This document shows positions 18,641 through 62,033 of a stretch of 64,000 nt of DNA, one piece after another; positions within the stretch are counted from its first letter, which is position 1; each line of letters begins with the position of its first letter. Source of the stretch: a virus; the IMG/VR virus record IMGVR_UViG_3300021185_003853, positions 50,313 to 114,312 of that record, one strand, 5' to 3'. A program made the translations under genes and the position numbers. The notes under the pieces were generated by a model. It had not been told where the DNA came from, made no database searches, and worked only from the letters and a program-made list of their open reading frames with translations.

Positions 18641-21600
18641 ATGGCAATAAAATTTAGTCAACTACCAGCAACCACAACGCTTGCGAACAATGATTTGTTT
18701 GCCGTAACATCGACAAGTGAAAATACTTCAGTAAGTATTTCGTTCGCTAGCCTTAAAAATATAATGGTTGACGCTTCAACATTCACGGATAATGTGAATG
18801 ATGTCGTGAGTGCATTGAACTCATATACGGCCGCAGGAACATCACCCGCATTAAACGCAGGAACACTTGGCGGATTTGATAGTGCGCATCATTTAAATTG
18901 GGATAACCTAACAGGTGTTCCGACTGTTCTGTCTAACATGAAAAATGTGCCATTAGATTTACATGATTTTGATAATAGTAAAGACGGCGGCGGGTTTATT
19001 AAAATTGTTTCTGATGGAATTACAACTTCATTAGCATTTGATCTTGTCGATCAAGGTGTGACACAATCCACGACTGCTGTTACAACCGATTATGTGTCTG
19101 AAGGCACTCAAAATTTATACTACACCGATGATAGAGTAGAAGAATATTTTGATTCTAATTTTGCCACGTTTTTCAACAGCTATAGTACAACATTCGATCA
19201 AGGTGAAGTGACTGATAGTTATTATGATACTGTAGGATTCGCACCTTCAGGTACCCTTAGTGCAACGGGCTTGGGCAGAGTTATCAGGATTAGAAGCCAA
19301 GGACAGATTCCAGGCATGTCTGCTGATTATGTAAAAAGAGATCAGTCAGGCAGATTTGCGTCTTATCAACCAAATAAAGTCGTTCGATTATACGGCGCAG
19401 ATTTGCCATCAAGAGAAGACCTAACAAATCAATTAAACGTGACTGGTGAAACAGTCGGGTTTACAGCTGTGAGTGATGGCAATGCAGGCATTACTCCTGC
19501 GTTTGACTCTGCTAATGTTGATGTTGCCACTAATACGATCACATTTACCAGTCCTCATGGTCTTGTGACAGGCAATGATATTGTCTATAATTCTGGTCAA
19601 GGTACTGCTTTAGGTAATCTGACAAGCGGCGCAGCGTATTATGTTATTAAAATTAGTGAAACCGTTATTCAATTGGCTGATAGTTATGCAAATTCTGGCG
19701 CAGCTGGCGGCAGTGCAACGCCACGAACAATCACTACTCAAGGTACAGGAACAACTCATACAATAACCCCTATTGTTGTAAATAATCCATATCAAAGATT
19801 TACATATAGAGTGTGTGAATTTGATATGAACACTGGGCAAGTTGCGCCTGCAGCAACACCTGTTTCTATTAACGTAAGTGTTCCTGCAACAACTGATCCC
19901 GCAAATGTCACAACATTCTTGCAAGAAGATCGTGATGCGCTATTGAAATCCTTTAGCGTTGAAAATTTTGTAAAATTAAATTTTACTCACGTTATTGAGC
20001 TTGCAGTTGCTGACGGCGTATCTCCTAATCGAGGACTTGCTGTTTATAGGTCAATAGCACAAGTAAATACTGTTGATTCAACTTTGCAAGGTGTGAGTAA
20101 ACTTGTTGCTGTTTTAGGTCCTAAAGATTTAGTTAACGATTCATGGATCGATTATTACACTGATGATATTTTAGATTATTCACTTAAAGATCAAGACGAT
20201 AATTCATATATTCCTGAAAATACTGTACACTTTAAACCATTTAGTGAAGGCGCTGATTCCGAACGAGGTTGGGTAGACGCAACAATTGAAAGTGTACAAT
20301 TCGAAGATGAAATTAATGAATCGTTAAGTACCTTCATTGATGTTACGCTGAAATCAAGCGTTAAAATGAACTCAGGTGAAGTTAACGGTGTTTGGATCTC
20401 ACATAATGATACAAATGCAATCCAGACAGGCATTCTAAACAATGCAGGTCGTGGGCAAAAAGCAGTTAGGTTAAATCCTAAAAATTATGTCGTCTCGGGA
20501 ATAACTGTTCCTGCAAACTTCAGTGTCGAAGGATTTTCATATAATACAAAATTAACCAAGTTGCCTTGGTCAGGGTGGAACGGATCAACAACCGCATCCT
20601 CATCAAAAATAATTACTGTTCAAAGCGAGACGGTCGGCACACGAACAGTTACAAATTCAAGTTTTGTAGGATTTGATATTGACGGCAATGCTGTAAACTC
20701 AATAGCGTTCGATGACACAACATTTAAAGGCAAAAACTCTGCGATTGATTGTGGGCAAGGGTCTACTGGCGTATTGCTTGACAAAATCAGAATGACCAGT
20801 CCTATCGGCGGCGGAATTTATGCACCAGATTCAAAAAACCTTAAAGTTGTTTCATCAGAAATGGTAAATAGTGGTGTCACGGATAGACATGTTTTCTCGC
20901 CACTTGTCGCTGACGGCGGAGAAAATACATCAATTTCATCTAATAGATTTGAAAACTTCTCAGATAGTTTAGATGCATCTGTAACAAACAAGGGGGTTAT
21001 TGAAGGCAATATTATTTCAAATTGTGGTTCAGGTTTACTGATGTATGGGTCAAGATTTATGATCACAAGTCCTAACGTATTGACAGGACCTGCAGGTGAA
21101 TTCTTGCCACAACCTGATAGTTATAATTCAGAGTTTGATTCAATTAATATTGATCTCACATCTGCATCTATTGGTATTCCTATTACTGATTTCAATTCAG
21201 GTCCGTTTAAATATCAAGAAAACGGTGAAGTGTATGATCTTAGTACATCACCCCCTACATATAAAATATTTGCTATTAAGAAATCATCTCTCGGGGAAGA
21301 GTCAATTTGGATTGAAGATTTGCGACCACCAGAAAGTGATGCTGCAGACAAACAAACAATCGTAAATGTTTTCAATGCTGGCGCTGGTGGTGCAGCTATT
21401 AATACTGGAAGTGACACGATACCTTTACCAGATCACGATTTAGTTACGGGCGATCCTGTTGTCTATAATGAAAATGACGGAACGTACACATCATTAACAG
21501 ACGGTACAACGTATTTCGTTAATGTTGTAGGGACTGGTAATGATATGATTAAATTGTACGACACTCAAGTAAATGCGCTTGCTGGCGGTAGTGGCGGCCG

Positions 21601-22312
21601 AGTAAATCTTGGTGCTGTAGGGGGTGCTAGCAATAATGGAGCAAATCATACATTGACACGAAGTGCATATGTTGAAATGCGACCTGGCTCTGAAGGTGAC
21701 AATCCTCCTTCTGAGGGCGGATTCCAGTGGACAATACCATCTGCATCAGTACGCAGAATGAAAATTGCTGGTCAGCAATATACTGTTGATTACATGAAAA
21801 ATCCGAATAATACAATTTATCATACTTCTGGTGACCCTGATAACGATATACCACTCGGCACACCTTCAACCACCGTAGGTGATGCGGATCATGTTGGTTT
21901 AGGTTGGTCAGCATCAGTAACACAATATGTACTCAACGGCATCATTCAAAATGACCCGAGTGATCCTGCTATTTGGAGTGCGCAATATAACGACAACGGA
22001 AAAGATTATGCTAACTATACAGTTAAAGTTTCTGATTATAAATACTTAGCAGTAGGCCGTAAAGTTCGACCAACAGCAGCAGGCGCAACAGCACATGACA
22101 ACTTCAGTGCAGGTGACAATACTGTCGTTCCACCTCCTGCAGATTTTGGCGTCATTGAAAGCATTTCAGGGTCTGAAACATTAAAAGAAGTTGTAATAAA
22201 ATGGGAAAATGCAAATCCTGTTGTTAATGCAAGCCAAACAGCAGCGGTAGGATCAAGTGGAACATTAGAAGCAGAAAATAGTTTTGTAATCGCAACCGGA
22301 AGGATTAAATAA
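18641..22312 (+). CDS. Large fibre/tailspike-like protein with right-handed beta-helix and two dispersed modules
   Basis: A 1223-aa protein. The N-terminus (AIKFSQLPATTTLANNDLFAVTS) is a frequent start of marine phage fibres, followed by a short fibre motif with NLYYTDDRVEEYFDSNF (about 160-176). Residues about 610-845 read as a right-handed beta-helix: short turns with repeated N, G and hydrophobic positions such as VTNSSFVGFDIDGNAVNSI, TSISSNRFENFSDS and GVIEGNIISNCGSGLLM. This is the fold of tailspikes and pectate-lyase-like proteins; no catalytic Asp/Glu arrangement could be fixed. Two copies of the roughly 85-residue 'HGL..G..V.Y...LT.G..Y.V' module flank the helix, at about 287-377 and 918-1007. 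Likely a virion surface protein that binds, and may degrade, glycans; that role is inference. Confidence 0.75.
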   Translation: MAIKFSQLPATTTLANNDLFAVTSTSENTSVSISFASLKNIMVDASTFTDNVNDVVSALNSYTAAGTSPALNAGTLGGFDSAHHLNWDNLTGVPTVLSNMKNVPLDLHDFDNSKDGGGFIKIVSDGITTSLAFDLVDQGVTQSTTAVTTDYVSEGTQNLYYTDDRVEEYFDSNFATFFNSYSTTFDQGEVTDSYYDTVGFAPSGTLSATGLGRVIRIRSQGQIPGMSADYVKRDQSGRFASYQPNKVVRLYGADLPSREDLTNQLNVTGETVGFTAVSDGNAGITPAFDSANVDVATNTITFTSPHGLVTGNDIVYNSGQGTALGNLTSGAAYYVIKISETVIQLADSYANSGAAGGSATPRTITTQGTGTTHTITPIVVNNPYQRFTYRVCEFDMNTGQVAPAATPVSINVSVPATTDPANVTTFLQEDRDALLKSFSVENFVKLNFTHVIELAVADGVSPNRGLAVYRSIAQVNTVDSTLQGVSKLVAVLGPKDLVNDSWIDYYTDDILDYSLKDQDDNSYIPENTVHFKPFSEGADSERGWVDATIESVQFEDEINESLSTFIDVTLKSSVKMNSGEVNGVWISHNDTNAIQTGILNNAGRGQKAVRLNPKNYVVSGITVPANFSVEGFSYNTKLTKLPWSGWNGSTTASSSKIITVQSETVGTRTVTNSSFVGFDIDGNAVNSIAFDDTTFKGKNSAIDCGQGSTGVLLDKIRMTSPIGGGIYAPDSKNLKVVSSEMVNSGVTDRHVFSPLVADGGENTSISSNRFENFSDSLDASVTNKGVIEGNIISNCGSGLLMYGSRFMITSPNVLTGPAGEFLPQPDSYNSEFDSINIDLTSASIGIPITDFNSGPFKYQENGEVYDLSTSPPTYKIFAIKKSSLGEESIWIEDLRPPESDAADKQTIVNVFNAGAGGAAINTGSDTIPLPDHDLVTGDPVVYNENDGTYTSLTDGTTYFVNVVGTGNDMIKLYDTQVNALAGGSGGRVNLGAVGGASNNGANHTLTRSAYVEMRPGSEGDNPPSEGGFQWTIPSASVRRMKIAGQQYTVDYMKNPNNTIYHTSGDPDNDIPLGTPSTTVGDADHVGLGWSASVTQYVLNGIIQNDPSDPAIWSAQYNDNGKDYANYTVKVSDYKYLAVGRKVRPTAAGATAHDNFSAGDNTVVPPPADFGVIESISGSETLKEVVIKWENANPVVNASQTAAVGSSGTLEAENSFVIATGRIK

Positions 22313-22318
22313 AAAAAT

Positions 22319-25300
22319 ATGTCTAGTTTAACGAATATTAATAATAACACAAGGGTAGTCAATGTAGGTAGAACAACCCCAGTTGCTCCAGGTCAACAAC
22401 CTGCATCAAAATCAATTCCTGTTGTTCTGGCTACTGATCAAACCGCTATTCCTGTTGTTGAGCAGAATAAAGTTCAATCAGAAGTTTCATTATCTTTGTT
22501 GGGTATTCCTCGATCAGAAGTTGCCTTAGGTATTTTTGCAGACGTTAATACTTACGATGTAAACCCATCAGAATGGTCATCGAGTCCTCAATACTACATT
22601 TCGGGTGATATTGGCGGTCATGGTATTAAACATTTGCCGACTGAAGCGGGTGCGCTTGTTGAAGCACCTCGTGATGAAAGTGCTGTACTGACTTCAAAGC
22701 GTTTCTTCAGATATCAACCAGGTCGTGTATCTGCGGCAACATTCGGCATCAAGTCATCTATTTCAACTGCTGATTACGCAAGAAATCCTGCTATTCGCAA
22801 ATATGGCATCTTTGATAACTTTGACGGATATTATTGGGAAACAAAACAGTCAGGTAAAGGTGATAACTTTAATGTTGTGCGTAGAACACAATCTTTAATG
22901 CACTTTCCACCTTCGCCGTTTGGTTTAACTAATGAGGTTTTACGTAAACCCAACCCTGCTGCAGACGATGAACCTATACCGTACAATCAAACAGATGATT
23001 ATCGCATCATCGGTAAGGAAGGAAAAGAATTAAAAACAGATGTACTTGAGCGTGATAGACAAGTATTAAGTGATAATATCCTTAGTATCGCTAAAAACGC
23101 ATTCAATAATCTATTAACTGCATCTGGTGGCACCAACGACTTCGCTGATTTTTATAATAACACTAATGGTAATGGTAATAATAGTGCCAACGAAGGCCTT
23201 GCCACTCCTTATGACAGATACGAATTTAAACAAAAGTGTCATCGTGACGTTCAATTTGCTCTTAAGATGATGTTGATGGATCTTGAATGGGGCGGTGATG
23301 CACATACAAGAATCAATACAAAAAATTATCAAACAGGACTTTTCAACTCGTATTTTCCAAATACCGCCACCGGCACTCCTGTACCTCCGGGGCAATTTGA
23401 ACTTGATTTGCATACTAATGCAAGAGCGATTGCTGTCGGTTTGCCGGGATTGACTTCACCGGGTGTAAGTAAGATCGGAGCATTATACGACTTTTTAGTT
23501 AAAGTTTCTGGAACAAACAATAAAGGATTCTTTAACAGAATAGTTGCTGGCGTATCGGCAACCAATGCGTATCCGCCAATCACAGGCACCAATGCTTCAT
23601 TAACAACGCTAAGCTATGGGTCAAAGAGTAAAGTTGATACGCTCATTGATACAAGAAAGCATTATTGGTCGTATTTTGTATCGTCATTTGTATTTGTGAA
23701 TAATGATCCCGATAACACTGCCACTAAACAAACATACAAATTTAATGCATTTGCAAATTATCTTCCTGAAGGTTACAATGCTTCGTTGATAGGTAAAGAA
23801 TTAAGTGGGTCAAATTATCCTTATGCATTGAACGAGTCAATAGACGGTGTTCCGCTTGCTGACGCTGCTGACGTTCTTGCTGTAAATGAATTTTACAGAA
23901 ACATAAAATATAAATGTGCTCGAGATCTCGAATACATTGTCAACGGGTATAAGGATGATATTGTTGGCGGCGGTAATGCTCAGACCCTTTACAACGCATC
24001 AATGTATTATAAAGCTGCGGGGTTATCAATCTTTACACAGGAAGACAGTGATATTCCTCGTGAAGTTGCGAAACATAATCATCTAAAACAATGGATACAA
24101 TCAGATTTTGAGGATTCAGATATTACAGGATTTGATTTACCTGTCACATCACCAGAAATTGTTAAGTTAAACTCTTTGTATGGCATCATAGATTCCAACT
24201 TCGTTAGAGAAACAAAAGAAGGTGTTGAGTTAGGTAGTCGTGGATTCGCAGGTAACCTGATTGCATTTAGAGACGGATTGTTGATGACACATGCAGCCGT
24301 CAATGACCCTAGCATGCTGAAAGACGCTAAACAAATAAGAACAACTGTTAAAGAACAATTTGATGATAGTCAACCTACATGCTTTAAGTTGGCAACAGGT
24401 AACGTGACTTTCGGGCAAAATGTTAAGGTTCTAACAACAGGAAATGAAACGCAAATTAGTGACGGAAACAACTTCACTTCAGATACAACAGGCAATGTTG
24501 TCGAAACTGTTGTTGCTGAATACGGAGGCATTTATAAGGTCAGTCGTGTTTACGGTCCTACAGGCAGTGAATTTACTCTACAGGATCAAGACGGAAATGA
24601 TATCTATGCTATGAGAGGTTCTGCTGATAGTGGCACTCTTATCACAGATACAATTGTTATTGAAACTGTTGTTGCGTTTATTGGCGATGTTGTATACAAT
24701 CCTGCTGAATATAGATTGGCAACTGGCATCCGTGCAGAAAGAACGATTCAATCGTATGACGGCACCGATGATACTATTCAATACACAGAAAATACAGACC
24801 CATTCCCGAAAGGTATGCAATGGCCGTATCGATATTCATCATCTGCGCAATTAGGTGATGCGACTGCTAAGTTTATTGGGCACATCGATACCTCTTTGAG
24901 TCCTAATGATGCTACTGAAATAGGTACAATTCGTCAACAATATGATGAAATTAATTTTACACCTGAATATATTAACTGGATTAAGAATAATGTTAAACCA
25001 GAATATTGGGGTGTTTACGAATATCGTGTGCCACGGTCAAGATTCAGTCATGACAAATTAGACGGCAAAACGTCTAAGAGAGTTTACAGCGATTTAGCAA
25101 CAGGTAATACTGGTATTGTTCGTCCGGGCATGGAAGTGCTAGACGAAGACGGCATCTGGACAGATGCTGTATCAGAATATGATTTTGACTTCACTAAAGT
25201 AACGATGCTTAAAATTGAGTTCTCGTGGTATGGTGCGGTAGGTGCATTGTTCCTTGCTTATGTTCCAATCGGTAACGGCGAAGCACGATGGGTAAGAGTA

Positions 25301-26593
25301 CATCACCTAAGAGCATCGAATCAGTTGAAGATCGCATCTCTTGGTAACGCAACACTACCAATCACATACAATGTATATGGCGGAGGATCGCCAGCAGCAT
25401 TTGGTGACGGAGAGGTTGCAACGCATACTTACGGAAGTTCACAGAGCCACCATATTGTAAAATACGGTGCTTCATACTACATCGATGGTGGTGACCGTGG
25501 CACTGTTCGTCTGTACAGCCATAATAATAATAGCCCCGTTGCTGCATATGGCAAGAAATGGGAAATGGGACAAGCAATCACCAGCGGCGTTCTTAATTTG
25601 AATGGGCAAACTCAAACATCGGGTGGCGAAGCATTGCCAATGCTAGCTGGCGGCAATAATGATTTGTCGTTACAATACTTTATGGGTGCAGAGTTAAAGA
25701 CTAACAGTGCTCTTGATGCAGGCATTAAAGTTGTTTGGGTCGATACTGCTACTGATAGATTGTATTTCTCAAGAAATCCTATAGGAACTGGTGTTACATT
25801 GATTCCTGATCGTGGTGAACTTGTTTACGGATTAGAGACAAAAGATTTCATTCTAAGCACTGTTGAAGGAAACCCTGTACGTAACAGAGTACAAGTGTAC
25901 CCAACAAAGTTATCAAGTGCAAATCTTAACTCTGGTCCTGTTCGATTAACTATGAAAAGAACTCCGATATTCCAGACCCTTACAACTATTGATTCAAGTT
26001 CAGCGCTCGCAATAGGATCAGATCCTTATATTGTAAGTGCTTCTAATGACCCATTGAACGTAGCAGAAACGAATACATATTTACAAAACGGCGAATCAAT
26101 TTACGGATGGTTCCAGGGAGTTATCGGCGCAATTGACGAAGAAACAATTTTCGGCAGATTGTATAAGAAAACAAATAGTTATTATTTTGAAGTTTTGCAA
26201 TCATTTGGTGATACAATCACGCTCAATGCTGATGGCAAATTTCTTCCTGATGTGAGGTATGTGAGAAACCCCTCAGGTGAAATTACCGGCCTTGTTGCCG
26301 ACACAGTAACAAAAACAGAAGTTCCTTTGCAGGATACATTGACATCAATTAAAGTGTTTGATAATCCTGTTACACCCATTCCGGGTACAGGTGCCAATGT
26401 CGCTACGCTATACTTAGCACAAAATGGAACAGAGCAGTTAGATCTCGATACGTATTTTGATTATAATAAAGAATATCTATCCTACCCACTAACAGATGAA
26501 GCGGAAACATTGTATTTTGTTGTTGATAAAGATACAGCAGCAGATGCTACCCCGAATGAAATAGCAATAGGATTGACATGGGAAGAACAATAG
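22319..26593 (+). CDS. Giant virion structural protein, paralogue A
   Basis: A 1424-aa protein paired with the next gene. Shared blocks: SLSLLGIPRSEVALGIFADV (near 60), RFFRYQPGRVSAATFGI (near 128), a PRSRFSHDKLDG block near 905, KIEFSWYGAVGALFLAYVPI (near 962) and KYGASYYIDGGDRGTVRLYS. Unlike its paralogue it contains two C-x-R-D helical motifs, at C307 (CHRDVQFALKMMLMDL) and C533 (CARDLEYIVNGYKDD), which also occur four times in the protein at 40877. Large proteins with these blocks are common in marine T4-like virions, but their function is not established. It ends directly against the next gene's ATG with no spacer. No enzymatic motif is seen. Confidence 0.72.
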   Translation: MSSLTNINNNTRVVNVGRTTPVAPGQQPASKSIPVVLATDQTAIPVVEQNKVQSEVSLSLLGIPRSEVALGIFADVNTYDVNPSEWSSSPQYYISGDIGGHGIKHLPTEAGALVEAPRDESAVLTSKRFFRYQPGRVSAATFGIKSSISTADYARNPAIRKYGIFDNFDGYYWETKQSGKGDNFNVVRRTQSLMHFPPSPFGLTNEVLRKPNPAADDEPIPYNQTDDYRIIGKEGKELKTDVLERDRQVLSDNILSIAKNAFNNLLTASGGTNDFADFYNNTNGNGNNSANEGLATPYDRYEFKQKCHRDVQFALKMMLMDLEWGGDAHTRINTKNYQTGLFNSYFPNTATGTPVPPGQFELDLHTNARAIAVGLPGLTSPGVSKIGALYDFLVKVSGTNNKGFFNRIVAGVSATNAYPPITGTNASLTTLSYGSKSKVDTLIDTRKHYWSYFVSSFVFVNNDPDNTATKQTYKFNAFANYLPEGYNASLIGKELSGSNYPYALNESIDGVPLADAADVLAVNEFYRNIKYKCARDLEYIVNGYKDDIVGGGNAQTLYNASMYYKAAGLSIFTQEDSDIPREVAKHNHLKQWIQSDFEDSDITGFDLPVTSPEIVKLNSLYGIIDSNFVRETKEGVELGSRGFAGNLIAFRDGLLMTHAAVNDPSMLKDAKQIRTTVKEQFDDSQPTCFKLATGNVTFGQNVKVLTTGNETQISDGNNFTSDTTGNVVETVVAEYGGIYKVSRVYGPTGSEFTLQDQDGNDIYAMRGSADSGTLITDTIVIETVVAFIGDVVYNPAEYRLATGIRAERTIQSYDGTDDTIQYTENTDPFPKGMQWPYRYSSSAQLGDATAKFIGHIDTSLSPNDATEIGTIRQQYDEINFTPEYINWIKNNVKPEYWGVYEYRVPRSRFSHDKLDGKTSKRVYSDLATGNTGIVRPGMEVLDEDGIWTDAVSEYDFDFTKVTMLKIEFSWYGAVGALFLAYVPIGNGEARWVRVHHLRASNQLKIASLGNATLPITYNVYGGGSPAAFGDGEVATHTYGSSQSHHIVKYGASYYIDGGDRGTVRLYSHNNNSPVAAYGKKWEMGQAITSGVLNLNGQTQTSGGEALPMLAGGNNDLSLQYFMGAELKTNSALDAGIKVVWVDTATDRLYFSRNPIGTGVTLIPDRGELVYGLETKDFILSTVEGNPVRNRVQVYPTKLSSANLNSGPVRLTMKRTPIFQTLTTIDSSSALAIGSDPYIVSASNDPLNVAETNTYLQNGESIYGWFQGVIGAIDEETIFGRLYKKTNSYYFEVLQSFGDTITLNADGKFLPDVRYVRNPSGEITGLVADTVTKTEVPLQDTLTSIKVFDNPVTPIPGTGANVATLYLAQNGTEQLDLDTYFDYNKEYLSYPLTDEAETLYFVVDKDTAADATPNEIAIGLTWEEQ

Positions 26594-35754: not shown

Positions 35755-35789
35755 TCCATTAATATCCAATAATCTTTGTAGGTGCTTGC
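35737..35789. terminator. Inverted repeat spanning the tail-to-tail gene junction, candidate bidirectional terminator
   Basis: GCAAGCACCT at 35737-35746 is repeated as its reverse complement AGGTGCTTGC at 35780-35789, a perfect 10-bp stem with a 33-base AT-rich loop. The convergent stop codons (shared TTAA, 35751-35754) are in the loop. A stem here could stop transcripts from both strands. The loop is long for an intrinsic terminator and no strong T-run follows, so this is tentative. In both genes the arm encodes Ala-Ser-Thr near the C-terminus. Confidence 0.4.
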
Positions 35790-38762: not shown

Positions 38763-38987
38763 ATGAGTGATATAAAAGCAACTCTGACACCATCAAATCG
38801 ATTATTAGTAACAAACTACTCAGTTGGAGGCAGTGTTGCTAGTGTCACTCTTAGTAACTTAATTGACGTAGATGCAACAGGTCTTGCTGACGGAGCACTT
38901 CTGATCTATAACGCATCAACAACCCAGTGGGAAGCATCAGTTGAGTTAGATAACGAAAGCACTGTGCTTGAAGGAGGCACTTTCTAA
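38763..38987 (+). CDS. Short fibre-like protein
   Basis: A 74-aa protein. The C-terminal half, VTLSNLIDVDATGLADGALLIYNASTTQWEAS, is a short motif widely seen in phage fibres (a '...DGxxLxYNxxTxxWxxx' beta hairpin). It lies between the 129-aa gene (1-base gap) and the 619-aa fibre, whose ATG overlaps its TAA as TAATG. It may be a separate small subunit, or the detached N-terminal segment of a once longer fibre. No frameshift joining it to the next gene is evident, since both have their own starts. Confidence 0.6.
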   Translation: MSDIKATLTPSNRLLVTNYSVGGSVASVTLSNLIDVDATGLADGALLIYNASTTQWEASVELDNESTVLEGGTF

Positions 38988-40846
38988 TGAGCACTATTAA
39001 ATTAAGACGATCATCACTAACAGGCACACCTATTGTCGGTACGCTCGGCGAAGGCGAAATCGCATATTCTTTTTTAGCAAATAATGGGTCGAATGGCGGT
39101 GACATTTTATACATTGGTACAACTGATGATGCATCATCTTTATCTGTGCCGATAGGCGGTAAATATTTTACTGACCTGTTAGGAGCATCGGCAGGAACAT
39201 TGCCTGCAAGTAAAGCAATTATAACAGACGCAAACTCTCGTGTCAACGAAATAAAAATCGGTGACACCACAAACCATTTACAATTCATTGCAACAACCGG
39301 TGAAACTGCCGCTCTAAATTTAACAATTAGCGCAGGTGGATTAAATTTCTCTGGCGGCAATCTTGTGTCGGATGGCACCGCAACAATTACTGGTTTGCCC
39401 ACTCCCACAAATGATTCTGATGTTGCAACAAAAGGATATGTCACAACTGTTGCATCAGGTCTTAATATCTCTGCCGGAGGACAATCAGGAACGGTTGATG
39501 GAGGTCAAACTTTCTCATTTGCTGGCGATCAGGGTGTAACAGCAATATTCGATGACGCTACTGATACTTTAACAATTGGATTGCAGCAAGTTCTGGACAC
39601 AGATGCAGATGTTGCATTCGGATCAGTCACGGTTGGTGAAACATCGGATAGGATAAAAATTAGCAATGATACTGTCGAGCAAGTAGAACCGCAAATCTAC
39701 GTAGAATTTGACGGGTCAGACACTAGTGTTGTGGACTTAACAACAAATACGTTTACTGTTAACAATCATGGATTATCAGATAACGATGTTGTCACCTATA
39801 CTCACGCTGGGACAGGTTCAGCATTTGATGCATTGACTCCAGGAACTTCTTACTATGTTGTGAACTCGGATATCAACACATTTAAATTATCTGCTCAACT
39901 GGGCGGATCGATTCAAGATATTCATTCACAAGCAACTGGTGGCGGAACATCAGATGTAATAAAAACTGCTTCAAATCCTCTCAATTTATTTGCGACAACT
40001 GATCAAATCACATTAGGTTCAAGTGTTAATAGTACAGTTGCAATTCAAGATAATCTAACAGTCGGCGGAAACGCAATAATCACTGGCGACTTAACTGTAA
40101 ACGGAACAAGCACCACTGTTAATTCAACGGTTGTTCAAGTTGATGATCCTATACTCGAACTTGGCACAAACTCAGTTGATTATGACGGATTAGGTCGTGG
40201 CGTCAAGTTCAATTATAGCGAAAGTGGAAATAAAGTCGGTTTCTTCGGTTATGATGTTAAAAACGCTGCTGACGACACATCAGACGGTTCAGGTAAATTT
40301 AGATTTTTGACTGATGCAACAAATGTTGATGCTAATAATTTAGGTGGAACTGTAGGAACCATTATAGCAAATGTTGAGGGTGACGTTACAGGTAATGCTG
40401 ATACCGCAAGTGCATTTGATAGTGACAGATCTATAACAATAACAGGTGCCGTAGAAAGCGGTGCTGATGCCGGTTCGGGTTTTGTTTCAGGTGCTGTTAC
40501 ATGGGATGGTTCTGGCGCATTAACGATTGACACAAGATTAACATCATCAGTCGGTTCACTTTTAGGATCTTATGTTGAAAATGTGACGATCCCGGGAACA
40601 TACGATGGCTCATCTGTTTTCACTGCAGTAACTGGAGGTAGTGCGATTGTTGTTGATAGTATCAACAGTCAAACTTCAGGTAACAGAATAAGTGTTGATG
40701 TTAATACGGCGACAACAAGAGCAAACGCAACAGGTATCACAAAAGCAGAATTAGGTGTTGCATCGTTTAGTGCTACATCATTCAGTGTTACTGATGGGTG
40801 GGTTGATCTGAATATCGTAGACGGCGGGTCATACGGCACTGGATAA
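38987..40846 (+). CDS. Tail fibre-like structural protein with one dispersed module
   Basis: A 619-aa protein. The N-terminus, IKLRRSSLTGTPIVGTLGEGEIAYSF, is the classic 'K-R-S...L..GE.A.N' start of many phage fibres, which the 1312-aa gene at 40877 also shares. Residues about 240-327 hold a copy of the 'NHGLSDNDVVTYTH...LTPGTSYYVV' module. Near 370 comes DLTVNGTSTTVNSTVVQVDD followed by ILELGTNS, a motif shared with the 993-aa fibre at 45154. The C-terminal third is beta-rich with no chaperone domain. Its late-box-like GATAAATA overlaps the stop. I infer a fibre or spike subunit. Confidence 0.7.
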   Translation: MSTIKLRRSSLTGTPIVGTLGEGEIAYSFLANNGSNGGDILYIGTTDDASSLSVPIGGKYFTDLLGASAGTLPASKAIITDANSRVNEIKIGDTTNHLQFIATTGETAALNLTISAGGLNFSGGNLVSDGTATITGLPTPTNDSDVATKGYVTTVASGLNISAGGQSGTVDGGQTFSFAGDQGVTAIFDDATDTLTIGLQQVLDTDADVAFGSVTVGETSDRIKISNDTVEQVEPQIYVEFDGSDTSVVDLTTNTFTVNNHGLSDNDVVTYTHAGTGSAFDALTPGTSYYVVNSDINTFKLSAQLGGSIQDIHSQATGGGTSDVIKTASNPLNLFATTDQITLGSSVNSTVAIQDNLTVGGNAIITGDLTVNGTSTTVNSTVVQVDDPILELGTNSVDYDGLGRGVKFNYSESGNKVGFFGYDVKNAADDTSDGSGKFRFLTDATNVDANNLGGTVGTIIANVEGDVTGNADTASAFDSDRSITITGAVESGADAGSGFVSGAVTWDGSGALTIDTRLTSSVGSLLGSYVENVTIPGTYDGSSVFTAVTGGSAIVVDSINSQTSGNRISVDVNTATTRANATGITKAELGVASFSATSFSVTDGWVDLNIVDGGSYGTG

Positions 40847-40876: not shown

Positions 40877-43800
40877 ATGTCAACTATTAAATTAAAAAAT
40901 AGCATTGTTCCAGGCGAACGGCCAGTTGTTGCTCCTTTAGACGATGAAACTAATGAGCTGATTCTCGGAGAAATTGCAATCAATACGCATGACGGTAAAA
41001 TGTTCATGCGTAAAGATCAAGACGGCACTATCTCTTTGCAAGAGGTAGGGCAGCGTGATATTGCTGAAAATGTTTTCTATGTTTCTAAAATAGGTGACGA
41101 TTCGAATGATGGTAAAACTATCGGCACAGCATTTGCATCAATTGAACAAGCGTTATTGAGAGCAACACCTATAACAGTCACATTTGATGTTCGTTCAGGT
41201 GCAACAATTGATATTGATGTTGCAACTAACACTATTCATTTGCCCGGTCATGTTTTTGACGATGGTGATGAAGTCATATATAGAGAAAATCTAGGATCTT
41301 ATTCTTCATTAACAAATGGACAACAATACTTCATAAGAAAGTATCCTAATCCATCAAACCTGGAAATTCTTCGAGAAAAGGTTCAACTGTATACAACTAG
41401 AAATGGCGCAATATCAGGACTATCTGCAGATTTAGTTACACTTGCAGTTTCAGGTTTAGGTAATGCGCATTCCTTAACACGAGACACAAAGCAAACCACA
41501 ATCTTTGTTAAAAGTGGGACGTACACTTTAAATAATGTTGTTCGTGGCACTGCACCAATGGGTGGCATTGTTGTTCCTAAAAATGTTTCAATTGTAGGTG
41601 ATAACTTAAGAACAACAAGAGTCAAAGGGTTACATGCAGGAAACGATCTTTTTTATGTTCAAAATGCGTCTTATATAACAAACCTAACATTTGAAGGTAT
41701 GCAAAGAGATGCCTCGCAACCTCGAGATCCTGCTGCTGTTTCATTCCCACCTATTGCGTTACAAGAAGGCGGTGTTGCTAATCCGATTTCAACAAGTCCT
41801 TATATAGAAAATTGTACAGCGTTTAATACGACTGCAACAGGCATGTTGATTGACGGAAGTTTGACTACAGGATTAAGATCAATGGTATCTGATTCGTTTA
41901 CGCAAATCAATGCTGGCGGTACAGGTGTTCACATCGTTAATCGTGGGTATGCTCAACTTGTCTCCATCTTTACTGTTTCATGTGATCACGCTGTATTATG
42001 TGAATCAGGCGGACAATGCTCATTAACAAACTCAAACGCATCGTTTGGTAATTTTGGATTAAAGGCAACTGGTGCATCTGAGTCATTGTATAGAGGTGTT
42101 ATTAACGCTAACGCAGTTCCGTTTGCCGACTATCTTGAAATAACAACACCAACACCTCCTAAATACGGAGATGCATTCTTGGTCAATGATGTTGATCGAC
42201 AACTGATTTCAAAATGCTCTCGTGACACAGGATTAATTGTAGATGCGGTTGCTCAAGATTTAGTATTGCAAACCAATTTCAAATCTATCTACGCAGGTAT
42301 CGCATATCAACGTAAAAATGCATTAGCAGATGCACAAATGGTTGAAGATACAGCAAACGCATTGCTTGAAACAAAACGCCTTGTAGGATTGTTAGAAAAT
42401 GTCATTCCTGTAAAAACAACAAGTGATATAAGTTTTGATGTCATAACAGACATTATTAAGTTTGGTACGGTTATCGATAATGCGGGTCTAGGTACTGCGA
42501 CAGAACCAGAATCAACATTAGTAAACGGAGCATCCTCAGTCGGAACTGTTCCTGCATTGACATTTGTTGATGTGCTGAATCGAGGTTCTGGTTTTGAAGA
42601 TGCAAAAGACAGATTAAAAACCAACAGATCATTTTTGCAAGAAGAAATAACAGCATACATTGCTGTTAATCATCCAAGTTTGACGTACAACACAAATAAA
42701 TGCAAAAGAGATGTTGGGTATATAATCGATGCACTACAATATGATTTGATGTATGGCGGAAATTCTGCAACAACTACCGCTGCTGAAAGTTATTTTGTGG
42801 GTGCAACATCGCAACTTGGCGCAGGGCAAAAAACAGCAACTGTAGATGCTTATGGTCGATTAGCAGATGTCTGTCAGCAAGTAATTTTAGGGACAACTGT
42901 TACTAAGTCAACAGGCAATAATGATGTTCAAGATATTTCAGGTTCTTCGGGTAGTGCATCAGCAGGCACAGCTGCACACGATTTAGTTGAAATTATCAAA
43001 GGTGTTATTGATGACGGAGACCTTGAAGCGTTACCTACAACGGTTCTTCCTGCATTTCCTACCACAGGAACTAACGCAGACGCAAAAATAGAAATAGATG
43101 GCAACAGACGTGCATTGAGAAATGCGACAACTGATTGGGTTATAATCAATACAGGATCAACTGATGATGGTAGCGGAAACGGTGATGGTAATGTATACTA
43201 CACTGTTGAAGGAATACAATCATCTCTTGACTTCACAGGAACTGATTTCAATGGTAACAATTTACCCGTATTTAATTCAAGTGGCGTACAAACAGGAACT
43301 GACACAATTCAAATAGCGAGTCATGGGTGGAAGCAAGGTCAACCTGTCAAATTCACAAAAGGGTTGACCGCCGGTCCTGGAGGATTGGTTGACGGTACAG
43401 TATATTTCATTAAGTATGTGACTGATGACAGTTTCAAACTTGCTACCGACTCAAATGATATAGATAATAGTATTCAGGTTCTATCGACACAAGGTACAGG
43501 TAATCACACACTGACGCCTAAGTTCTTTTATAACACAACAAAATGTCAAAGAGACGTAGGACTAATCCTTGATGCTGTTAAAGATGATGTATTGTTAGGC
43601 ACAAACTTTAACGCTGTGTATACCGGTATTGCATATCAACGTGCGAGCGCATATACTACAGTTACAAACTCAAATCAAAAGAATCCTACAATCGCTTCAA
43701 TGTTGGATACAAAACGTCTTGTTGGTCAATTGTCTGATATTTCATCGGATCCAGATGTCCTCGCAAGAGCGAATCATGCGTTTGATGAAATTATACACAT

Positions 43801-44816: not shown

Positions 44817-45161
44817 ATGGCACAATTAAATACGTTTAAGTCAGTACAACATAAATTCAAATTATCTTCAGCGGGAGATTCTGATAAATTAGTTTACAAA
44901 GCACCGTTCGGATATACAGCAATTGTTCTGAATGCACAATGTGCAAATATTGGTGCGGCAGATAGAACTGTCACATTTAAACTGAAAAAAGGAACAACAG
45001 AATCTATATTGGTTGATGAATTGGTTATCCCGCCAAACGATGCTGCTAACTTAGCAACAGGTAAATTAGTTCTACAAACAGGTGATGAATTAATCGGGTT
45101 TGCTAGCGATGCAAATGATTTAGATTTAACATTAAGTTTCTTGGAAACATTAGATGCGTAG
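44817..45161 (+). CDS. Small beta-rich virion protein
   Basis: A 114-aa protein placed 1 base after the 1312-aa gene. It reads like a single beta-sandwich: KLVYKAPFGYTAIVLNAQCANIG, RTVTFKLKKGTTESILVDELVIPPNDAANL and KLVLQTGDELIGFAS. The PPNDAANLxxGKLVLxxGDxL pattern is a common shape in small phage structural proteins that bind fibres or decorate tails. It overlaps the next gene by 8 bases, so the two are probably translationally coupled. No closer identification. Confidence 0.6.
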   Translation: MAQLNTFKSVQHKFKLSSAGDSDKLVYKAPFGYTAIVLNAQCANIGAADRTVTFKLKKGTTESILVDELVIPPNDAANLATGKLVLQTGDELIGFASDANDLDLTLSFLETLDA

Positions 45162-55848: not shown

Positions 55849-56853
55849 ATGGCTAAAAATTATTATTTCGAAAATTTTGAAAACTCGATGGAGCAAACTC
55901 TTATTGAGGACCTCGTTATAGAGTCAATTAAAATTTTCGGCGTTGACTGCTTCTATGTCACCAAAACAAAGAAAACGAAAACTGCTGTATTAACAGTAGG
56001 TGCTAATGCGATTTGCACTCTTGACAATGGTTCTGTTGTGACTAATGATTCTAATGAGTTGCCGACATTTCTAAACAACGGATACGGATATCTTGCAGTA
56101 CCCACAGTTACATTTGAGGAACCTCCTGCAGGCGGAACTCGAGCAGAAGGCGTAGCAACTATCGTTCGAGGAATAGTAACAAAAATAGATGTCACTAATG
56201 CAGGAACCGGGTACACTTCTGTACCGTCAATTACGATTCAAACTCCTGATGATACTAATGTGGGACAACACGCCTTTGTAGATGGCGGATACGATGATTT
56301 GTTAAATGAAGACGATCTTCCCGGGTATAATTCAGCACTAGAAGTTGAAATGTATGTTAAAAATGTTGACGGATTCGAAGGTGAAGGCGACTTCTTGTCA
56401 AAATTCGGTTTACAAATTCGTGATTCAATGACGCTAACAGTTGCAATGAGAACATGGGAAAATGAAATAGGAGCGAATATACAAGATGATCGCACTCGTC
56501 CATTTGAAGGCGATTTAATATATTTCCCATTGAATAAAAAAGTTTTCAAAATCATGCATGTTGAACACGAGTCTATTTTCTATCAAATGGGATCGCTGCA
56601 AACATATGATTTAAAATGTGAATTGTTTGAGTACAGTAACGAACAATTTAATACAGGTGTACAGGAAATTGATACGCTATATGATGCATATAAAACTGTT
56701 GTTACTGGAGCGACATCTGGCGTTGATACCCCAGCCGCAAATGTAGAATCAGTTGATACCCTTGCAGACAACTTTACAATAGAACAAGTAGGAGATAATA
56801 TTCTTGATTTCAGTGAAGGAAATCCATTCGGTGAAGGCGAGGATTGGTTATAA
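55849..56853 (+). CDS. gp14: Neck protein gp14 with inserted beta module
   Basis: A 334-aa protein (T4 gp14 is 256 aa). The core starts with YYFENFENSMEQTLIEDLVI, then ESIKIFGVDCFYVTKT, and resumes with YDDLLNEDDLPGYNSALEVE, then MYVKNVDGFEGEGDFLSKFG, RPFEGDLIYFPLNKKVFKIM and YDLKCELFEYSNEQFNTG, all typical of gp14. Between about 45 and 140 is an insertion with two strand pairs, GYGYLAVPTVTFEEPP and AGTGYTSVPSITIQTP, linked by AEGVATIVRGIVTKIDV. This type of pair also occurs in gp8 and in the 1198-aa protein. The insertion accounts for most of the length difference from T4. The stop overlaps the next start by one base (TAATG). Confidence 0.92.
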   Translation: MAKNYYFENFENSMEQTLIEDLVIESIKIFGVDCFYVTKTKKTKTAVLTVGANAICTLDNGSVVTNDSNELPTFLNNGYGYLAVPTVTFEEPPAGGTRAEGVATIVRGIVTKIDVTNAGTGYTSVPSITIQTPDDTNVGQHAFVDGGYDDLLNEDDLPGYNSALEVEMYVKNVDGFEGEGDFLSKFGLQIRDSMTLTVAMRTWENEIGANIQDDRTRPFEGDLIYFPLNKKVFKIMHVEHESIFYQMGSLQTYDLKCELFEYSNEQFNTGVQEIDTLYDAYKTVVTGATSGVDTPAANVESVDTLADNFTIEQVGDNILDFSEGNPFGEGEDWL

Positions 56854-57800
56854 TGTTCGGAAATAAATTCTATCATCAAACAACTCGCAGGTATGTTGCA
56901 CTTTTCGGAACATTATTCAATGATATTATAATTGAACGAAAGGACAATTCTGGGCAATTAATTCAGTCAATGAAAGTGCCTATTCACTATGCTCCTATGG
57001 AAAAAATCCTTGCGAAGATTGAGCAAGACCCTGGTCTGAATAACCCTGCAGGAATGACGTTGCCGAGAATGTCATTCGAAATAGTTAATATGAATTTTGC
57101 TCCAGAAAGAAAATTAACATCATTGACTAAAAACACAAGGGTCTCAGATACAAATGATATACAGTCGTCTCAGTTCGTTCCTGCGCCATATGATATTGAA
57201 TTTCAACTAAATATTATGACAAAGCATACTGAAGACGGATTGAAGATCATAGAACAAATTATGCCTTTCTTCAAACCTGATTTCACAGCATCTGTAAAGT
57301 TGGTTGATGATATGGATTTATATGTCGATGTTCCTGTCATAATGAATAATATAACGATGAGCGATGAGTACGAAGGTGATTTCACAACAAGGCGTGTTTT
57401 AAATTGGTCGCTAAGTTTTACTATCAAAGGTTATTATTTTGGGCCTGTTACAAACAAAAAAGTTATTAAGTTTGTTGAGACGCAAACATACGAAGATTTA
57501 CCTTTCGTAAATCCTGCAGATCAACCCGCATTGCAACAATATACAGTACAACCAGGTGATCGTGTTACTTCAGGATCTTTCCAGGCAGCGAAAACATATA
57601 GGATATTAAATCTTGGCCAAGGCACATCACAGCAATGGAATGATGTTGCAGGAACAACTGGCGTAACATATGATATTGGAACGCAATTTACAGCGCAAAA
57701 CGATGGCAGTGCGATAACCGGCGGCATTGCAACATTAACATACTCTTATTTTGATGAAGATGATAATTGGAGTGCTATTGTAGTAATTGATGAGGATTAA
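56853..57800 (+). CDS. gp15: Tail completion / sheath stabiliser gp15 with extra C-terminal module
   Basis: A 315-aa protein from ATG 56853, which overlaps the gp14 stop; an in-frame codon 9 bases earlier is less likely. T4 gp15 is 272 aa. Conserved core: MFGNKFYHQTTRRYVALFGT, then LFNDIIIER, MKVPIHYAPMEKILAKIEQD, LPRMSFEIVNMNFAPERKL, YDIEFQLNIMTKHTEDGLKI and FTTRRVLNWSLSFTIKGYYF. After about residue 220 comes an added domain, GSFQAAKTYRILNLG...QQWNDVAGTT...GTQFTAQNDGSAI, the same module found at the end of gp7 and in a fibre. gp15 caps the tail at the head junction, so the add-on would be placed near the neck. Confidence 0.92.
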   Translation: MFGNKFYHQTTRRYVALFGTLFNDIIIERKDNSGQLIQSMKVPIHYAPMEKILAKIEQDPGLNNPAGMTLPRMSFEIVNMNFAPERKLTSLTKNTRVSDTNDIQSSQFVPAPYDIEFQLNIMTKHTEDGLKIIEQIMPFFKPDFTASVKLVDDMDLYVDVPVIMNNITMSDEYEGDFTTRRVLNWSLSFTIKGYYFGPVTNKKVIKFVETQTYEDLPFVNPADQPALQQYTVQPGDRVTSGSFQAAKTYRILNLGQGTSQQWNDVAGTTGVTYDIGTQFTAQNDGSAITGGIATLTYSYFDEDDNWSAIVVIDED

Positions 57801-59891: not shown

Positions 59892-62033
59892 ATGGCTTTT
59901 CAACTAAGTCCAGGCATAAATGTCAGCGAAATTGATTTAACAAATGCTGTGCCTGCTGTTGGTACTAGCGAGGGTGCTTTTGTAGGTACTTTTCGTTGGG
60001 GTCCAACGAATGAAAGAGTGCTGATTAGTTCAGAATCACAACTAGCAGCAAGGTTTGGTAAACCATACATCAGTGCAGATGGCACATGGAGTAACCAACA
60101 ATCATTCTTTTCAGCGGCCAACTTTTTATCATATAGCAGTGCACTGTATGTGACACGAACCGATGATGCTACTGCCGCAAAAGGCGGTGCTACAATATTT
60201 AGCGCAAAATATAAAGGGTTATTAGGTAATTCACTAAAGGTGATTGCTTGTGATGACGGCGTTAATAGTTTTTTTGATGCAAATGGCGCACCTAGCTCTA
60301 CAATTGCATTGACACAAGGATCATTCAGCGCAACAGTTACAGGTGCAACCCCTAGTGTGGGTGTTGCAACAACTTTTGATGCTTCAAGCGCTAGTGTTGT
60401 TCGTACTGACGATGCTGCAGATGGCGATACCCCAGGTAACAGTTTCACTATCGCAGCTCATGGGTTTACTACTGGTCAACCCCTAGTATACAGTAACGGC
60501 AGTGCAGTTGATAGTGCAGACACTATTGGCGGATTAAGCACTGGGCAGACGTACTATGCTGTTGTGACAGGAACTGATTACATCCAACTTTCAAATACTG
60601 AAGCAAATGCGCTTGCTGACACACCTCAAGTGCTTGACCTATTCGGTACCGGTGCCGCCGGCTCGTCATTTACAACTATTGCATCAACTTCAACAGTAAA
60701 TAATTATTTTGAAGCTGGCGGATATATTGTTATTGATGATGATGAATATGAAATCGCATCAGTGGGTGTTCATGAATCTAACGCAAACACAATTTCATTA
60801 AACCTACAAAACAAATATTGGGGCCCAACCCAAACTGGCGTATCATATGGATACCAGTGGGAAGGATCAGGTGTATTTGACAATAGTCCTACAACAGGTC
60901 GTGTTCATGTTGCAGTAATTGATGTAACCGGTACGATTTCAGGAGTTGCAGGCACTATTTTAGAAACCTATGATAGTGTTTCAATTGTCGATACAAGTGC
61001 AAAACAATTCGATGGAACAAGTGCATATCTTCGTGATCTATTAGAATTGAATTCAGATTATATTGAATTCCAGGCTGATGTTGAAGATGCTGCTGCAGAC
61101 ACTGCAATCTTAGGCACATTCACTGAAGTGTTTACCGGAGGCAATGACGGGCAATCTGAAACAGCAGGCGATTTCACAACAGGAAAGGTGATGGCGGGTT
61201 GGGATATATACAAGAATCCCGAAGACGTTGACATTTCATTAGTTATTACAGGTATGGCAAATGCTGATATTCAAAATTATGTAATGGACAATATTGCAGA
61301 ATCACGAAAAGATTGTGTCGCATTCTTATCTCCACGCAAAGAAGATGATACCGCTCAAAAGATTGTTGCATACTCTGTGCCATTATCAGGAAGTTCATAT
61401 TCCGTTATTGATAGTGGGTATAAATATCAGTATGACAAATACAATGACAAATATGTTTGGATTCCATTAAATGGTGATGTTGCCGGGTTGTGTGCAAGAA
61501 CTGACGAAGAAAGAGATCCGTGGTTCTCACCTGCTGGTTACAACAGAGGTCAAATTAAGAATGTTGTTAAACTTAATTTGAATCCGAATAAAACGCAACG
61601 TGACTTATTGTACAAAAACAATATCAACCCAGTAATTATTGAACCTGGTTCAGGCGCAATCTTATTTGGTGACAAAACAATGCAAAGAAATCCAAGCGCA
61701 TTTGATAGAATCAATGTACGTAGATTGTTCATTGTACTAGAAAAAGCAATTGCATTAGCATCTAAGAGTACATTGTTTGAGTTCAATGATGAATTTACAC
61801 GAGGCACTTTCAGAAACATGATCGAGCCGTTCTTACGTGATGTGCAAGGTAGACGAGGCATTTATGACTTTAAAGTGGTTTGTGACGAAACAAACAATAC
61901 TGGCGAAGTCATTGATACGAACAGATTTATCGGCGACATTTACATTAAACCTGCTCGTTCTATTAACTTCATTCAGTTGAACTTTGTTGCAGTACGAACT
62001 GGTGTAGAATTTAACGAAATTATAGGTCAATAA
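59892..62033 (+). CDS. gp18: Tail sheath protein gp18 with inserted dispersed module
   Basis: A 713-aa protein (T4 gp18 is 659 aa). The N-terminus, LSPGINVSEIDLTNAVPAVGTSE, then GAFVGTFRWGP, and the C-terminal blocks MAGWDIYKNPEDVDISLVIT, YNRGQIKNVVKLNLNPNKTQ, INPVIIEPGSGAILFGDKTM, FDRINVRRLFIVLEKAIALA and VVCDETNNTGEVIDTNRFIG are standard gp18. Residues about 165-262 hold a copy of the module 'AAHGFTTGQPLVYS...LSTGQTYYAVV...YIQLSNT' that is otherwise found in fibres of this phage. I infer it protrudes from the sheath surface. The start is fixed by the GGGAGA ribosome site. Confidence 0.96.
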   Translation: MAFQLSPGINVSEIDLTNAVPAVGTSEGAFVGTFRWGPTNERVLISSESQLAARFGKPYISADGTWSNQQSFFSAANFLSYSSALYVTRTDDATAAKGGATIFSAKYKGLLGNSLKVIACDDGVNSFFDANGAPSSTIALTQGSFSATVTGATPSVGVATTFDASSASVVRTDDAADGDTPGNSFTIAAHGFTTGQPLVYSNGSAVDSADTIGGLSTGQTYYAVVTGTDYIQLSNTEANALADTPQVLDLFGTGAAGSSFTTIASTSTVNNYFEAGGYIVIDDDEYEIASVGVHESNANTISLNLQNKYWGPTQTGVSYGYQWEGSGVFDNSPTTGRVHVAVIDVTGTISGVAGTILETYDSVSIVDTSAKQFDGTSAYLRDLLELNSDYIEFQADVEDAAADTAILGTFTEVFTGGNDGQSETAGDFTTGKVMAGWDIYKNPEDVDISLVITGMANADIQNYVMDNIAESRKDCVAFLSPRKEDDTAQKIVAYSVPLSGSSYSVIDSGYKYQYDKYNDKYVWIPLNGDVAGLCARTDEERDPWFSPAGYNRGQIKNVVKLNLNPNKTQRDLLYKNNINPVIIEPGSGAILFGDKTMQRNPSAFDRINVRRLFIVLEKAIALASKSTLFEFNDEFTRGTFRNMIEPFLRDVQGRRGIYDFKVVCDETNNTGEVIDTNRFIGDIYIKPARSINFIQLNFVAVRTGVEFNEIIGQ

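What the first reader, a model, noticed from the sequence alone, without database searches (positions are those of the whole stretch)
19502..60680. Dispersed module A: seven copies in five genes, including the tail sheath
An about 80-95-residue module with the pattern 'T....HGL..GD.V.Y......L..G..YYV.......KL' occurs at nt 19502-19770 and 21394-21662 (1223-aa gene), 32800-33050 (LRR gene), 39703-39966 (619-aa fibre), 41182-41475 and 43285-43520 (1312-aa gene) and 60385-60680 (gp18). Several copies end in an 'HTLT/HTIT' strand. Having it in both appendages and the sheath suggests a mobile surface domain that spreads by recombination and coats the virion.
Basis: partly seen in the sequence, partly recalled or inferred. 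Interest (0 to 1): 0.75.

Follow-up and report, generated by a model that had tools for sequence, protein, structure and literature searches.

The report
Mobile surface barrel on phage tails
A small barrel-shaped protein domain occurs seven times in five tail proteins of this virus, including its contractile sheath, and relatives of it occur in other phages' tails and in bacterial flagella and giant bacterial proteins; it behaves like an add-on that comes and goes, probably for touching cell surfaces.

Summary
Each of the seven segments is found by a profile of the other six at 23.8-51.7 bits, against at most 8.9 bits in 1,240 shuffled proteins. The 114-kb virus record has just these seven. 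One copy, modelled alone, is a small six-strand beta-barrel (pLDDT 90), closest to the FCCH domain of ubiquitin E1, then to phage endosialidase barrels. No Pfam or NCBIfam model reaches its cut-off on the window copies.

The module is an accessory insert. One site (A5) is empty in three of five related genes. In sheaths 15 of 84 scored rows carry it, needing seven gains or losses. It also occurs in cyanophage baseplate wedge proteins, a podovirus nozzle, giant bacterial proteins and marine flagellins.

'Spreads by recombination' holds only over long times: against two close relatives, synonymous divergence in the copies overlaps that of their genes while amino-acid change is mostly faster. 'Coats the virion' is inferred. 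Most likely role: weak multivalent attachment to surface glycans, like phage Ig-like domains; binding is untested.

The parts
19505..19777 (+). Module copy A1 (aa 289-379) in the 1223-aa gene 18641-22312
   Evidence: modelled alone at pLDDT 90.2; among the most variable stretches of its gene against L102 and L103
21392..21667 (+). Module copy A2 (aa 918-1009) in the 1223-aa gene 18641-22312
   Evidence: A1 and A2 both present in 6 of 6 related genes L102-L107
32800..33048 (+). Module copy A3 (aa 871-953) in the LRR gene 30190-34608; the most diverged copy
   Evidence: 23.8 bits, filters off; 73.3 bits with all seven in the profile; PF16190 match 17.6 bits, cut-off 29.5
39719..39973 (+). Module copy A4 (aa 245-329) in the 619-aa fibre gene 38987-40846
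   Evidence: present in 5 of 5 related genes L095, L098-L101; L096, related over 45 residues only, shows no module hit
41201..41488 (+). Module copy A5 (aa 109-204) in the 1312-aa gene 40877-44815; present in L097 and L100, site empty in L098, L099, L101
43277..43525 (+). Module copy A6 (aa 802-883) in the 1312-aa gene; present in all five relatives aligned
60411..60689 (+). Module copy A7 (aa 174-266) in the tail sheath gene gp18 (59892-62033), between the conserved LGNSLKV block and the W....D..P block; GC 0.48 against 0.40 for the gene
60351..60419 (+). Stretch before and into the start of the sheath module (aa 154-176, pLDDT under 50), read as a linker
60648..60716 (+). End of the sheath module and stretch after it (aa 253-275, mostly pLDDT under 50), read as a linker
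59892..62033 (+). gp18-like tail sheath, 713 aa; two Pfam sheath domains over cut-off

Best explanation
Module A is an accessory small beta-barrel domain (FCCH-like fold) carried by outward-facing parts of virion proteins. Shown: the seven copies are homologous; the copy modelled alone folds as a stand-alone barrel; the module is gained and lost at given sites in a fibre-type gene and in sheath genes; against two close relatives most copies change amino acids faster than their host proteins without clearly raised synonymous divergence; the same family is carried by cyanophage baseplate wedge proteins, a podovirus nozzle, giant bacterial proteins and the middle of flagellins. Inferred: in the sheath the barrel hangs on flexible linkers from the outer, non-core part, so an assembled tail would show one module per sheath subunit. 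Inferred and untested: it binds, weakly and multivalently, glycans of the host envelope or of the surroundings, as a barrel of similar fold does in the K1F endosialidase, raising contact time before the specific receptor is engaged.
For: Leave-one-out profiles against shuffles. Model pLDDT 90.2; VIA Z 7.7 to UBA1 FCCH, 6.2 to phi92 endosialidase residues 261-340, 5.7 to LKA1 gp49 tailspike, 5.5 to endoNF 429-508. Weak sequence hits to the endosialidase barrel: Pfam PF12195 in 6 of 64 copies, best E 7.4e-4; K1F aa 439-469 at 6.0 bits, inside the VIA range. That barrel is one of three polysialic-acid sites of the K1F tailspike and affects host discrimination (PMC12632334, passages). Empty site for A5; sheath presence or absence. 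Low-confidence stretches on both sides in gp18. dN/dS in the copies above the rest of the gene in 8 of 9 comparisons, from two relatives. Where their nature is known, carriers are tail, flagellar or giant proteins.
Against: No binding data. The sequence link to the endosialidase barrel is at noise level on its own (6.0 bits; shuffles reach 8.9; hhalign probability 52; PDB profile hit E 0.076 next to antibody chains of similar E; with the 40-copy profile antibody chains rank above it). VIA Z under 8 may be only a common barrel arrangement; a hepatitis E capsid domain scores 6.2 too. The best structural match, E1 FCCH, is an intracellular enzyme part. Bacterial tandem arrays could be spacers. 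Faster change can be relaxed constraint; no significance test was made, and A3 against L152 goes the other way (0.10 against 0.17). Low pLDDT beside the sheath copy may reflect gappy alignment as well as flexibility. 0 of 8 isolate sheaths examined carry it.
Confidence: 0.5

Rival explanations
1. Structural add-on: the barrel cements, spaces or shields virion proteins and filaments and binds nothing outside the particle.
For: Extra sheath domains have been proposed to stabilise the tail (PMC9230969, passages). Bacterial giant proteins carry up to 14 copies in a row, as spacers do. The invariant positions H, L, G, Y, L look structural (my reading).
Against: Low-confidence stretches on both sides of the sheath copy argue against tight packing. 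The module is absent from 69 of 84 scored sheath rows. A cement should be conserved, yet in 15 of 16 gene pairs the copies are less conserved than the rest.
Confidence: 0.3
2. Neutral passenger: a self-folding domain tolerated in surface loops, spread by rare illegitimate recombination and kept without a function.
For: Gains and losses; mostly higher dN; strands only slightly more conserved than loops (mean entropy 2.37 against 2.70).
Against: dN/dS in the copies is below 1 (0.10-0.55), which points to purifying selection. Several sites keep the copy across genes about 50-60% identical (A1 and A2 in 6 of 6, A4 in 5 of 5, A6 in 5 of 5).
Confidence: 0.15
3. Recent recombination among the seven copies of one genome keeps shuffling them.
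For: Seven copies in five genes; 10 matches in the 54.7-kb record G010 and 8 in G016. The sheath copy has higher GC than its gene (0.48 against 0.40) and could not be tested against a close relative. A1-site copies of different genomes do not group on the tree.
Against: Only short DNA matches between copies, the longest 57 nt at 74%; mean 32% protein identity; no grouping by genome, some by site; dS in copies overlaps that of their genes.
Confidence: 0.04
4. Chance or composition: T/G/S-rich beta stretches that only look alike.
For: The five proteins look rich in T, G and S (by eye).
Against: Leave-one-out scores far above 1,240 shuffled proteins and above all other stretches of the real window proteins.
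Confidence: 0.01

Closest known systems
E1 FCCH domain (Pfam PF16190; first catalytic cysteine half-domain of UBA1/UBA6)
   Same: Best fold match: VIA Z 7.7, rmsd 2.4, 72 residues; the HGL motif region of copy A3 is the part matched by Pfam.
   Different: Below Pfam cut-off in the window; no ubiquitin-E1 catalytic domains in the five proteins; in 7 bacterial genomes PF16190 hits 3 places in one genome, none overlapping the 17 module places of that genome.
Beta-barrel domain of phage endosialidases (Pfam PF12195; phi92, K1F endoNF)
   Same: Similar small-barrel fold (Z 6.2 and 5.5), part of a phage tail protein, weak shared motif at the same place.
   Different: Sequence link not significant alone; no endosialidase domain among the Pfam hits here.
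Ig-like domains of tailed phages (Fraser et al. 2006, seen only as a reference entry in PMC10684548; discussed in PMC9230969, passages)
   Same: Accessory, exchanged between virion protein classes, proposed weak carbohydrate contact; extra domains of sheaths are often Ig-like.
   Different: The present module is predicted as a six-strand small barrel; of 64 copies one has an Ig-named Pfam hit, at E 0.06.
Insertion domain of RcGTA tailspike TspA (residues 337-411; PMC13420450, passages)
   Same: Six-strand barrel inserted in a beta-helix of a tail appendage.
   Different: Not compared here; relation unknown.
PHROG 2885 baseplate wedge subunit, 4179 positions
   Same: Contains regions matching 6 of the 7 copies.
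   Different: A whole-protein family; the module is not a named unit in it.

Membership tests
E1_FCCH (PF16190) | Score over Pfam's curated cut-off (29.5 bits) | tested here: not met
   1 of 7 window copies matched, at 17.6 bits. Of 64 copies, 4 matched at E up to 0.1, best 8.1e-5, bits not printed
E1_FCCH (PF16190) | FCCH barrel fold | tested here: met
   VIA Z 6.3-7.7 to E1 enzymes, which fill the top 37 rows. Foldseek probability 0.99 but E 0.05
E1_FCCH (PF16190) | Sits inside a ubiquitin-activating enzyme | tested here: not met
   No E1 catalytic domains among Pfam hits of the five proteins
Endosialidase beta-barrel (PF12195) | Sequence family match | tested here: inconclusive
   0 of 7 window copies listed; 6 of 64 copies, best E 7.4e-4; K1F 6.0 bits
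Endosialidase beta-barrel (PF12195) | Fold | tested here: inconclusive
   Z 6.2 and 5.5, under the level at which VIA is decisive
Endosialidase beta-barrel (PF12195) | Polysialic-acid binding | not testable with these tools
   Known for K1F from PMC12632334 passages; no ligand test here
Phage Ig-like accessory domains | Ig beta-sandwich fold | tested here: inconclusive
   No Ig-named chain among the 50 rows shown; absence there is not proof
Accessory (non-core) sheath domain, PMC9230969 types 2-3 | Lies between the N- and C-terminal core parts of the sheath and is not shared by all relatives | tested here: met
   Position aa 174-266 between core parts; absent from 69 of 84 scored rows
Accessory (non-core) sheath domain, PMC9230969 types 2-3 | Faces away from the tail tube | not tested
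   Inferred from sheath homology (T4-type sheaths Z 34-40)

The most novel reading that the evidence does not exclude
A previously unnamed family of small barrel lectin-like modules is shared by phage tails (sheath, baseplate, fibre, nozzle) and by bacterial surface polymers (flagellin, giant proteins), so that phages and bacteria carry the same glycan- or self-binding unit, and a contractile sheath becomes a multivalent adhesive surface.
Probability: 0.25. Interest if true: 0.75.

Novelty: new variant of a known kind. Interest (0 to 1): 0.55.

Why it matters
It gives a second, non-Ig example of an accessory domain shared between quite different virion proteins, including the contractile sheath, which is usually seen as a pure motor. 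No Pfam or NCBIfam model reaches its cut-off on the window copies, so marine phage and bacterial proteins carry an unlabelled domain. Its presence in flagellins and giant bacterial proteins links phage decoration with bacterial surface proteins and can be tested with single purified domains.

Tried and rejected
Chance similarity: rejected by leave-one-out profiles and shuffles. An eighth copy in gene 22319-26593 (aa 1028-1072): 7.2 bits with the full profile, at shuffle level, and not among the seven matches of the whole-record search; dropped.

Recent gene conversion among copies: only short DNA matches and dS within or near the range of the gene. Three of nine module dS values are clearly above their gene's mean: A2 against L103, A4 against L095, A3 against L152. 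The first two lie inside the range of outside windows; for A3 no windows were made. The copy tree is poorly resolved (2 of 61 inner branches starred): all 5 A6-site copies group (81) and 4 of 5 A4-site copies (89), but A1-site copies are scattered and the two A5 copies are not joined, so site grouping is a tendency only.

CarD_TRCF_RID and Cpn10 hits in a bacterial array have no single stretch that passes alone; read as small-barrel look-alikes, not followed. Antibody chains beside or above the endosialidase in profile searches were taken as chance. A single-copy search of bacterial genomes found no relative; the allowed second scan with a consensus query found 34 loci.

Literature: the searches listed no title or abstract start that names this module in phage tails; most listed papers were not opened, and the FCCH search (20 of 190 listed) returned unrelated papers. 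The library holds only open-licence papers. Four papers were opened, by outline or passages only: PMC9230969, PMC12632334, PMC13420450, PMC10684548.

Counts that shrank: 80 of at least 600 sheath loci were kept by the tool; with the seven-copy profile 10 of these 80 had the module, with the larger profiles 14. 64 of 80 copies went into alignment A2 (near-duplicates over 0.85 alike and 4 partial ones dropped). A3 has 40: the 23 copies of L089-L094 were left out because the structure tool takes no such loci, and the L075 copy was left out too. Of 89 sheath rows (80 loci, the window, 8 isolates picked by me), 5 without the N-terminal block were not scored, leaving 84; L055 also lacks most of that block but was scored as carrying the module because its copy is there. 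For the gp18 model 69 of 70 listed sheaths were used (L072 left out). Locus L096, related to the 619-aa fibre over 45 residues only, was not counted as a relative. L123 was asked for but not held.
Full report
WHAT WAS CLAIMED AND CHECKED. The window is positions 50313-114312 of a 114,312-base virus record. The seven segments translate in frame inside five genes: a 1223-aa protein (two copies), an LRR protein, a 619-aa fibre, a 1312-aa protein (two copies) and the tail sheath. The sheath is clear: Pfam sheath domains, PHROG 23 at E 4e-125, and T4-type sheath structures as nearest folds, Z 34-40. A profile of any six copies finds the seventh at 23.8-51.7 bits. The best other stretch of the real window proteins scores 8.3 bits, the best of 1,240 shuffled proteins 8.9. 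Copy A3 is the weakest and was missed with HMMER's default filters. A profile search of the whole record finds seven matches, these seven.

WHAT IT IS. Iterated search over the window and the loci fetched by then gave 80 copies at E below 1e-5. A model of copy A1 with 40 aligned copies has pLDDT 90.2 and pTM 0.81: six short strands forming a small barrel. VIA-align ranks FCCH domains of ubiquitin E1 enzymes first (Z 7.7, rmsd 2.4, 72 residues), then, mixed with a hepatitis E capsid domain (6.2), phage domains: phi92 endosialidase 261-340 (6.2), LKA1 gp49 tailspike (5.7), endoNF 429-508 (5.5), and tail-tube or head-tail proteins (5.5-6.2). These Z values are under 8, and Foldseek's E-values against the PDB are not significant (best 0.05); the fold class is therefore likely, the descent is not shown. 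Against predicted viral proteins Foldseek gives 20 matches at E up to 0.001, among them baseplate wedge initiators and a tail fibre. No Pfam or NCBIfam model reaches its cut-off on the window copies. Over 64 copies, Pfam's endosialidase barrel matches 6 and E1_FCCH 4, all weakly; NCBIfam matches 1.

WHERE ELSE IT OCCURS. In annotated phages, confirmed by the profile: gp7-type baseplate wedge proteins of cyanophages P-HM2 and B23, the YapH fibre of P-HM2, the tail tubular protein B of Pelagibacter phage Baldr, a protein in the structural region of Sphingomonas phage Kimi, a 2853-aa protein of Actinomycetia phage DSL-LC01, and a virion structural protein of podovirus ctQRb9. By tblastn alone: Sinorhizobium phage tail fibres (E 2e-5 to 1e-3) and further cyanophage records at E up to 1. 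A strict tblastn with the consensus finds only 12 of 50,697 phage records, so among isolates it is uncommon or much diverged. In bacterial genomes 34 loci were found with 207 copies in 35 open frames, many of them giant and in tandem. Of four frames scanned with Pfam, two (L129, L135) are flagellins, with the module copies between the N- and C-terminal flagellin domains; L130 has the same size and spacing as L135 but was not scanned; a third (L108, filed as an Actinomycetota bin) is a phage nozzle protein; the fourth, L110, is a giant frame with 14 copies. In 7 of 7 bacterial genomes searched whole (8 asked, one not held), module matches lie in frames of 3,718-14,286 aa, but for one of 372 aa; E1_FCCH hits 3 places in 1 of the 7, none at a module place.

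ACCESSORY AND MOBILE, BUT SLOWLY. In the 1312-aa gene, copy A5 lies between two conserved blocks. Of five relatives two have it (L097, the near-identical one, and L100) and three have a short loop instead (L098, L099, L101), while A6 is in all five. A1 and A2 are in 6 of 6 relatives (L102-L107) and A4 in 5 of 5 (L095, L098-L101). In sheaths 14 of 80 fetched loci plus the window carry it, at two places: after the SYxNxLYVTR block, and between LGNSxxV and W....D..P (an alignment of the window and 20 loci). On a tree built without the insert region, 8 changes are needed for 89 rows (6 forced by well-supported branches); leaving 5 rows without an N-terminal block unscored gives 7 changes for 84 rows. 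The sheaths of 8 isolates (Cr30, phiM12, Mosig, S-PM2, S-SZBM1, S-B05, Melnitz-3, P-TIM68) have none. These rows are no random sample: 80 are the best of at least 600.

Against relatives of about 95% identity (two virus records, G008 and G009), dN/dS is 0.45 and 0.55 (A1), 0.31 and 0.47 (A2), 0.23 and 0.10 (A3), 0.26 (A4), 0.19 (A5), 0.32 (A6), against 0.11-0.17 for the rest of the same genes; dS is 0.12-0.34 against 0.16-0.24. So 8 of 9 comparisons show faster amino-acid change, without a significance test, and none calls for recent replacement of a copy. In 15 of 16 gene pairs at all distances the module is less conserved than the rest; the exception is A4 against L101; for A3 the two are alike (95 and 96%, 94 and 95%). 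In sliding windows the copy is among the most variable stretches in 6 of 7 cases (at most 9% of outside windows as low); A5 is not (54%). A7 could not be tested this way: its nearest relative, L009, is 70% identical outside the module and carries two copies there. A7 also has higher GC than its gene, 0.48 against 0.40, which would fit a more recent arrival. The tree of 64 copies groups the five A6-site copies and four of five A4-site copies across genomes, with modest support, leaves A1-site copies scattered, and never gathers the window's copies.

HOW IT PROBABLY WORKS. In the gp18 model (mean pLDDT 80.9) residues 181-250 have block means of 57-86, while the stretches before (154-176) and after (253-275) are mostly under 50: read as a tethered domain, though gappy alignment may add to the low values. 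Sheath extra domains lie away from the tail tube and have been proposed to aid adhesion or stability (PMC9230969, passages). The endosialidase barrel, of similar fold, is one of three polysialic-acid binding sites of the K1F tailspike, and changes there alter host discrimination; it is described as largely permissive of substitutions (PMC12632334, passages). With the carrier list the best reading is a surface-contact domain, most likely weakly glycan-binding. Steps shown: homology, fold class of one copy, accessory nature, mostly faster change. Steps inferred: outward exposure, binding, effect on adsorption.

RELATION TO KNOWN KINDS. It works like the Ig-like domains of tailed phages but has another predicted fold. 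It resembles E1 FCCH in fold and fails that family's sequence cut-off and protein context. It may share descent with the endosialidase barrel; sequence evidence is inconclusive (hhalign probability 52). Domain sharing between phage protein classes is documented (PMC10684548, passages); the passages found there do not name this domain, nor did the listings of my paper searches. I rate it a new variant of a known kind: accessory surface domains of tailed phages.

Noticed in passing
window genes 22319-26593 (aa about 960-1080) and 26594-30190 (aa about 473-567): A second shared module of about 100 residues between two neighbouring large genes (E 5e-22); both match PHROG 1645 virion structural protein.
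   Followed up: partly
window gene 40877-44815, aa 421-720 and 888-1103: Internal repeats inside the 1312-aa protein, with a KC.RDVG motif seen by eye, unrelated to module A.
   Followed up: no
window genes 14298-15758 (aa 391-482) and 15769-17904 (aa 541-711): Shared C-terminal segment, E 5e-18.
   Followed up: no
window genes 4135-7107 (aa 901-990) and 56844-57800 (aa 227-318): Shared C-terminal segment, E 2e-12; weaker echo in gene 45154-48135.
   Followed up: no
window 35751-38300, minus strand: 849-aa frame on the opposite strand from its neighbours, with no Pfam match at E 0.1 and no PHROG match at E 0.001.
   Followed up: partly
window gene 30190-34608, aa 1018-1054 and 1187-1230: The LRR protein also has cupredoxin-like and Lcl_C-like segments below Pfam cut-off.
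   Followed up: no
L129, L130, L135: Frames of 1115-1145 aa from alphaproteobacterial contigs with five module copies each; L129 and L135 are flagellins by Pfam, with the copies between N- and C-terminal flagellin domains.
   Followed up: partly
L108:770-4249: A contig filed as an Actinomycetota bacterium encodes a phage nozzle protein (PF25675, E 4e-136) with two module copies; probably a phage contig binned with bacteria.
   Followed up: no
G010 (record of L104), 54.7 kb: Ten module matches in six frames, more than in the window's virus.
   Followed up: no
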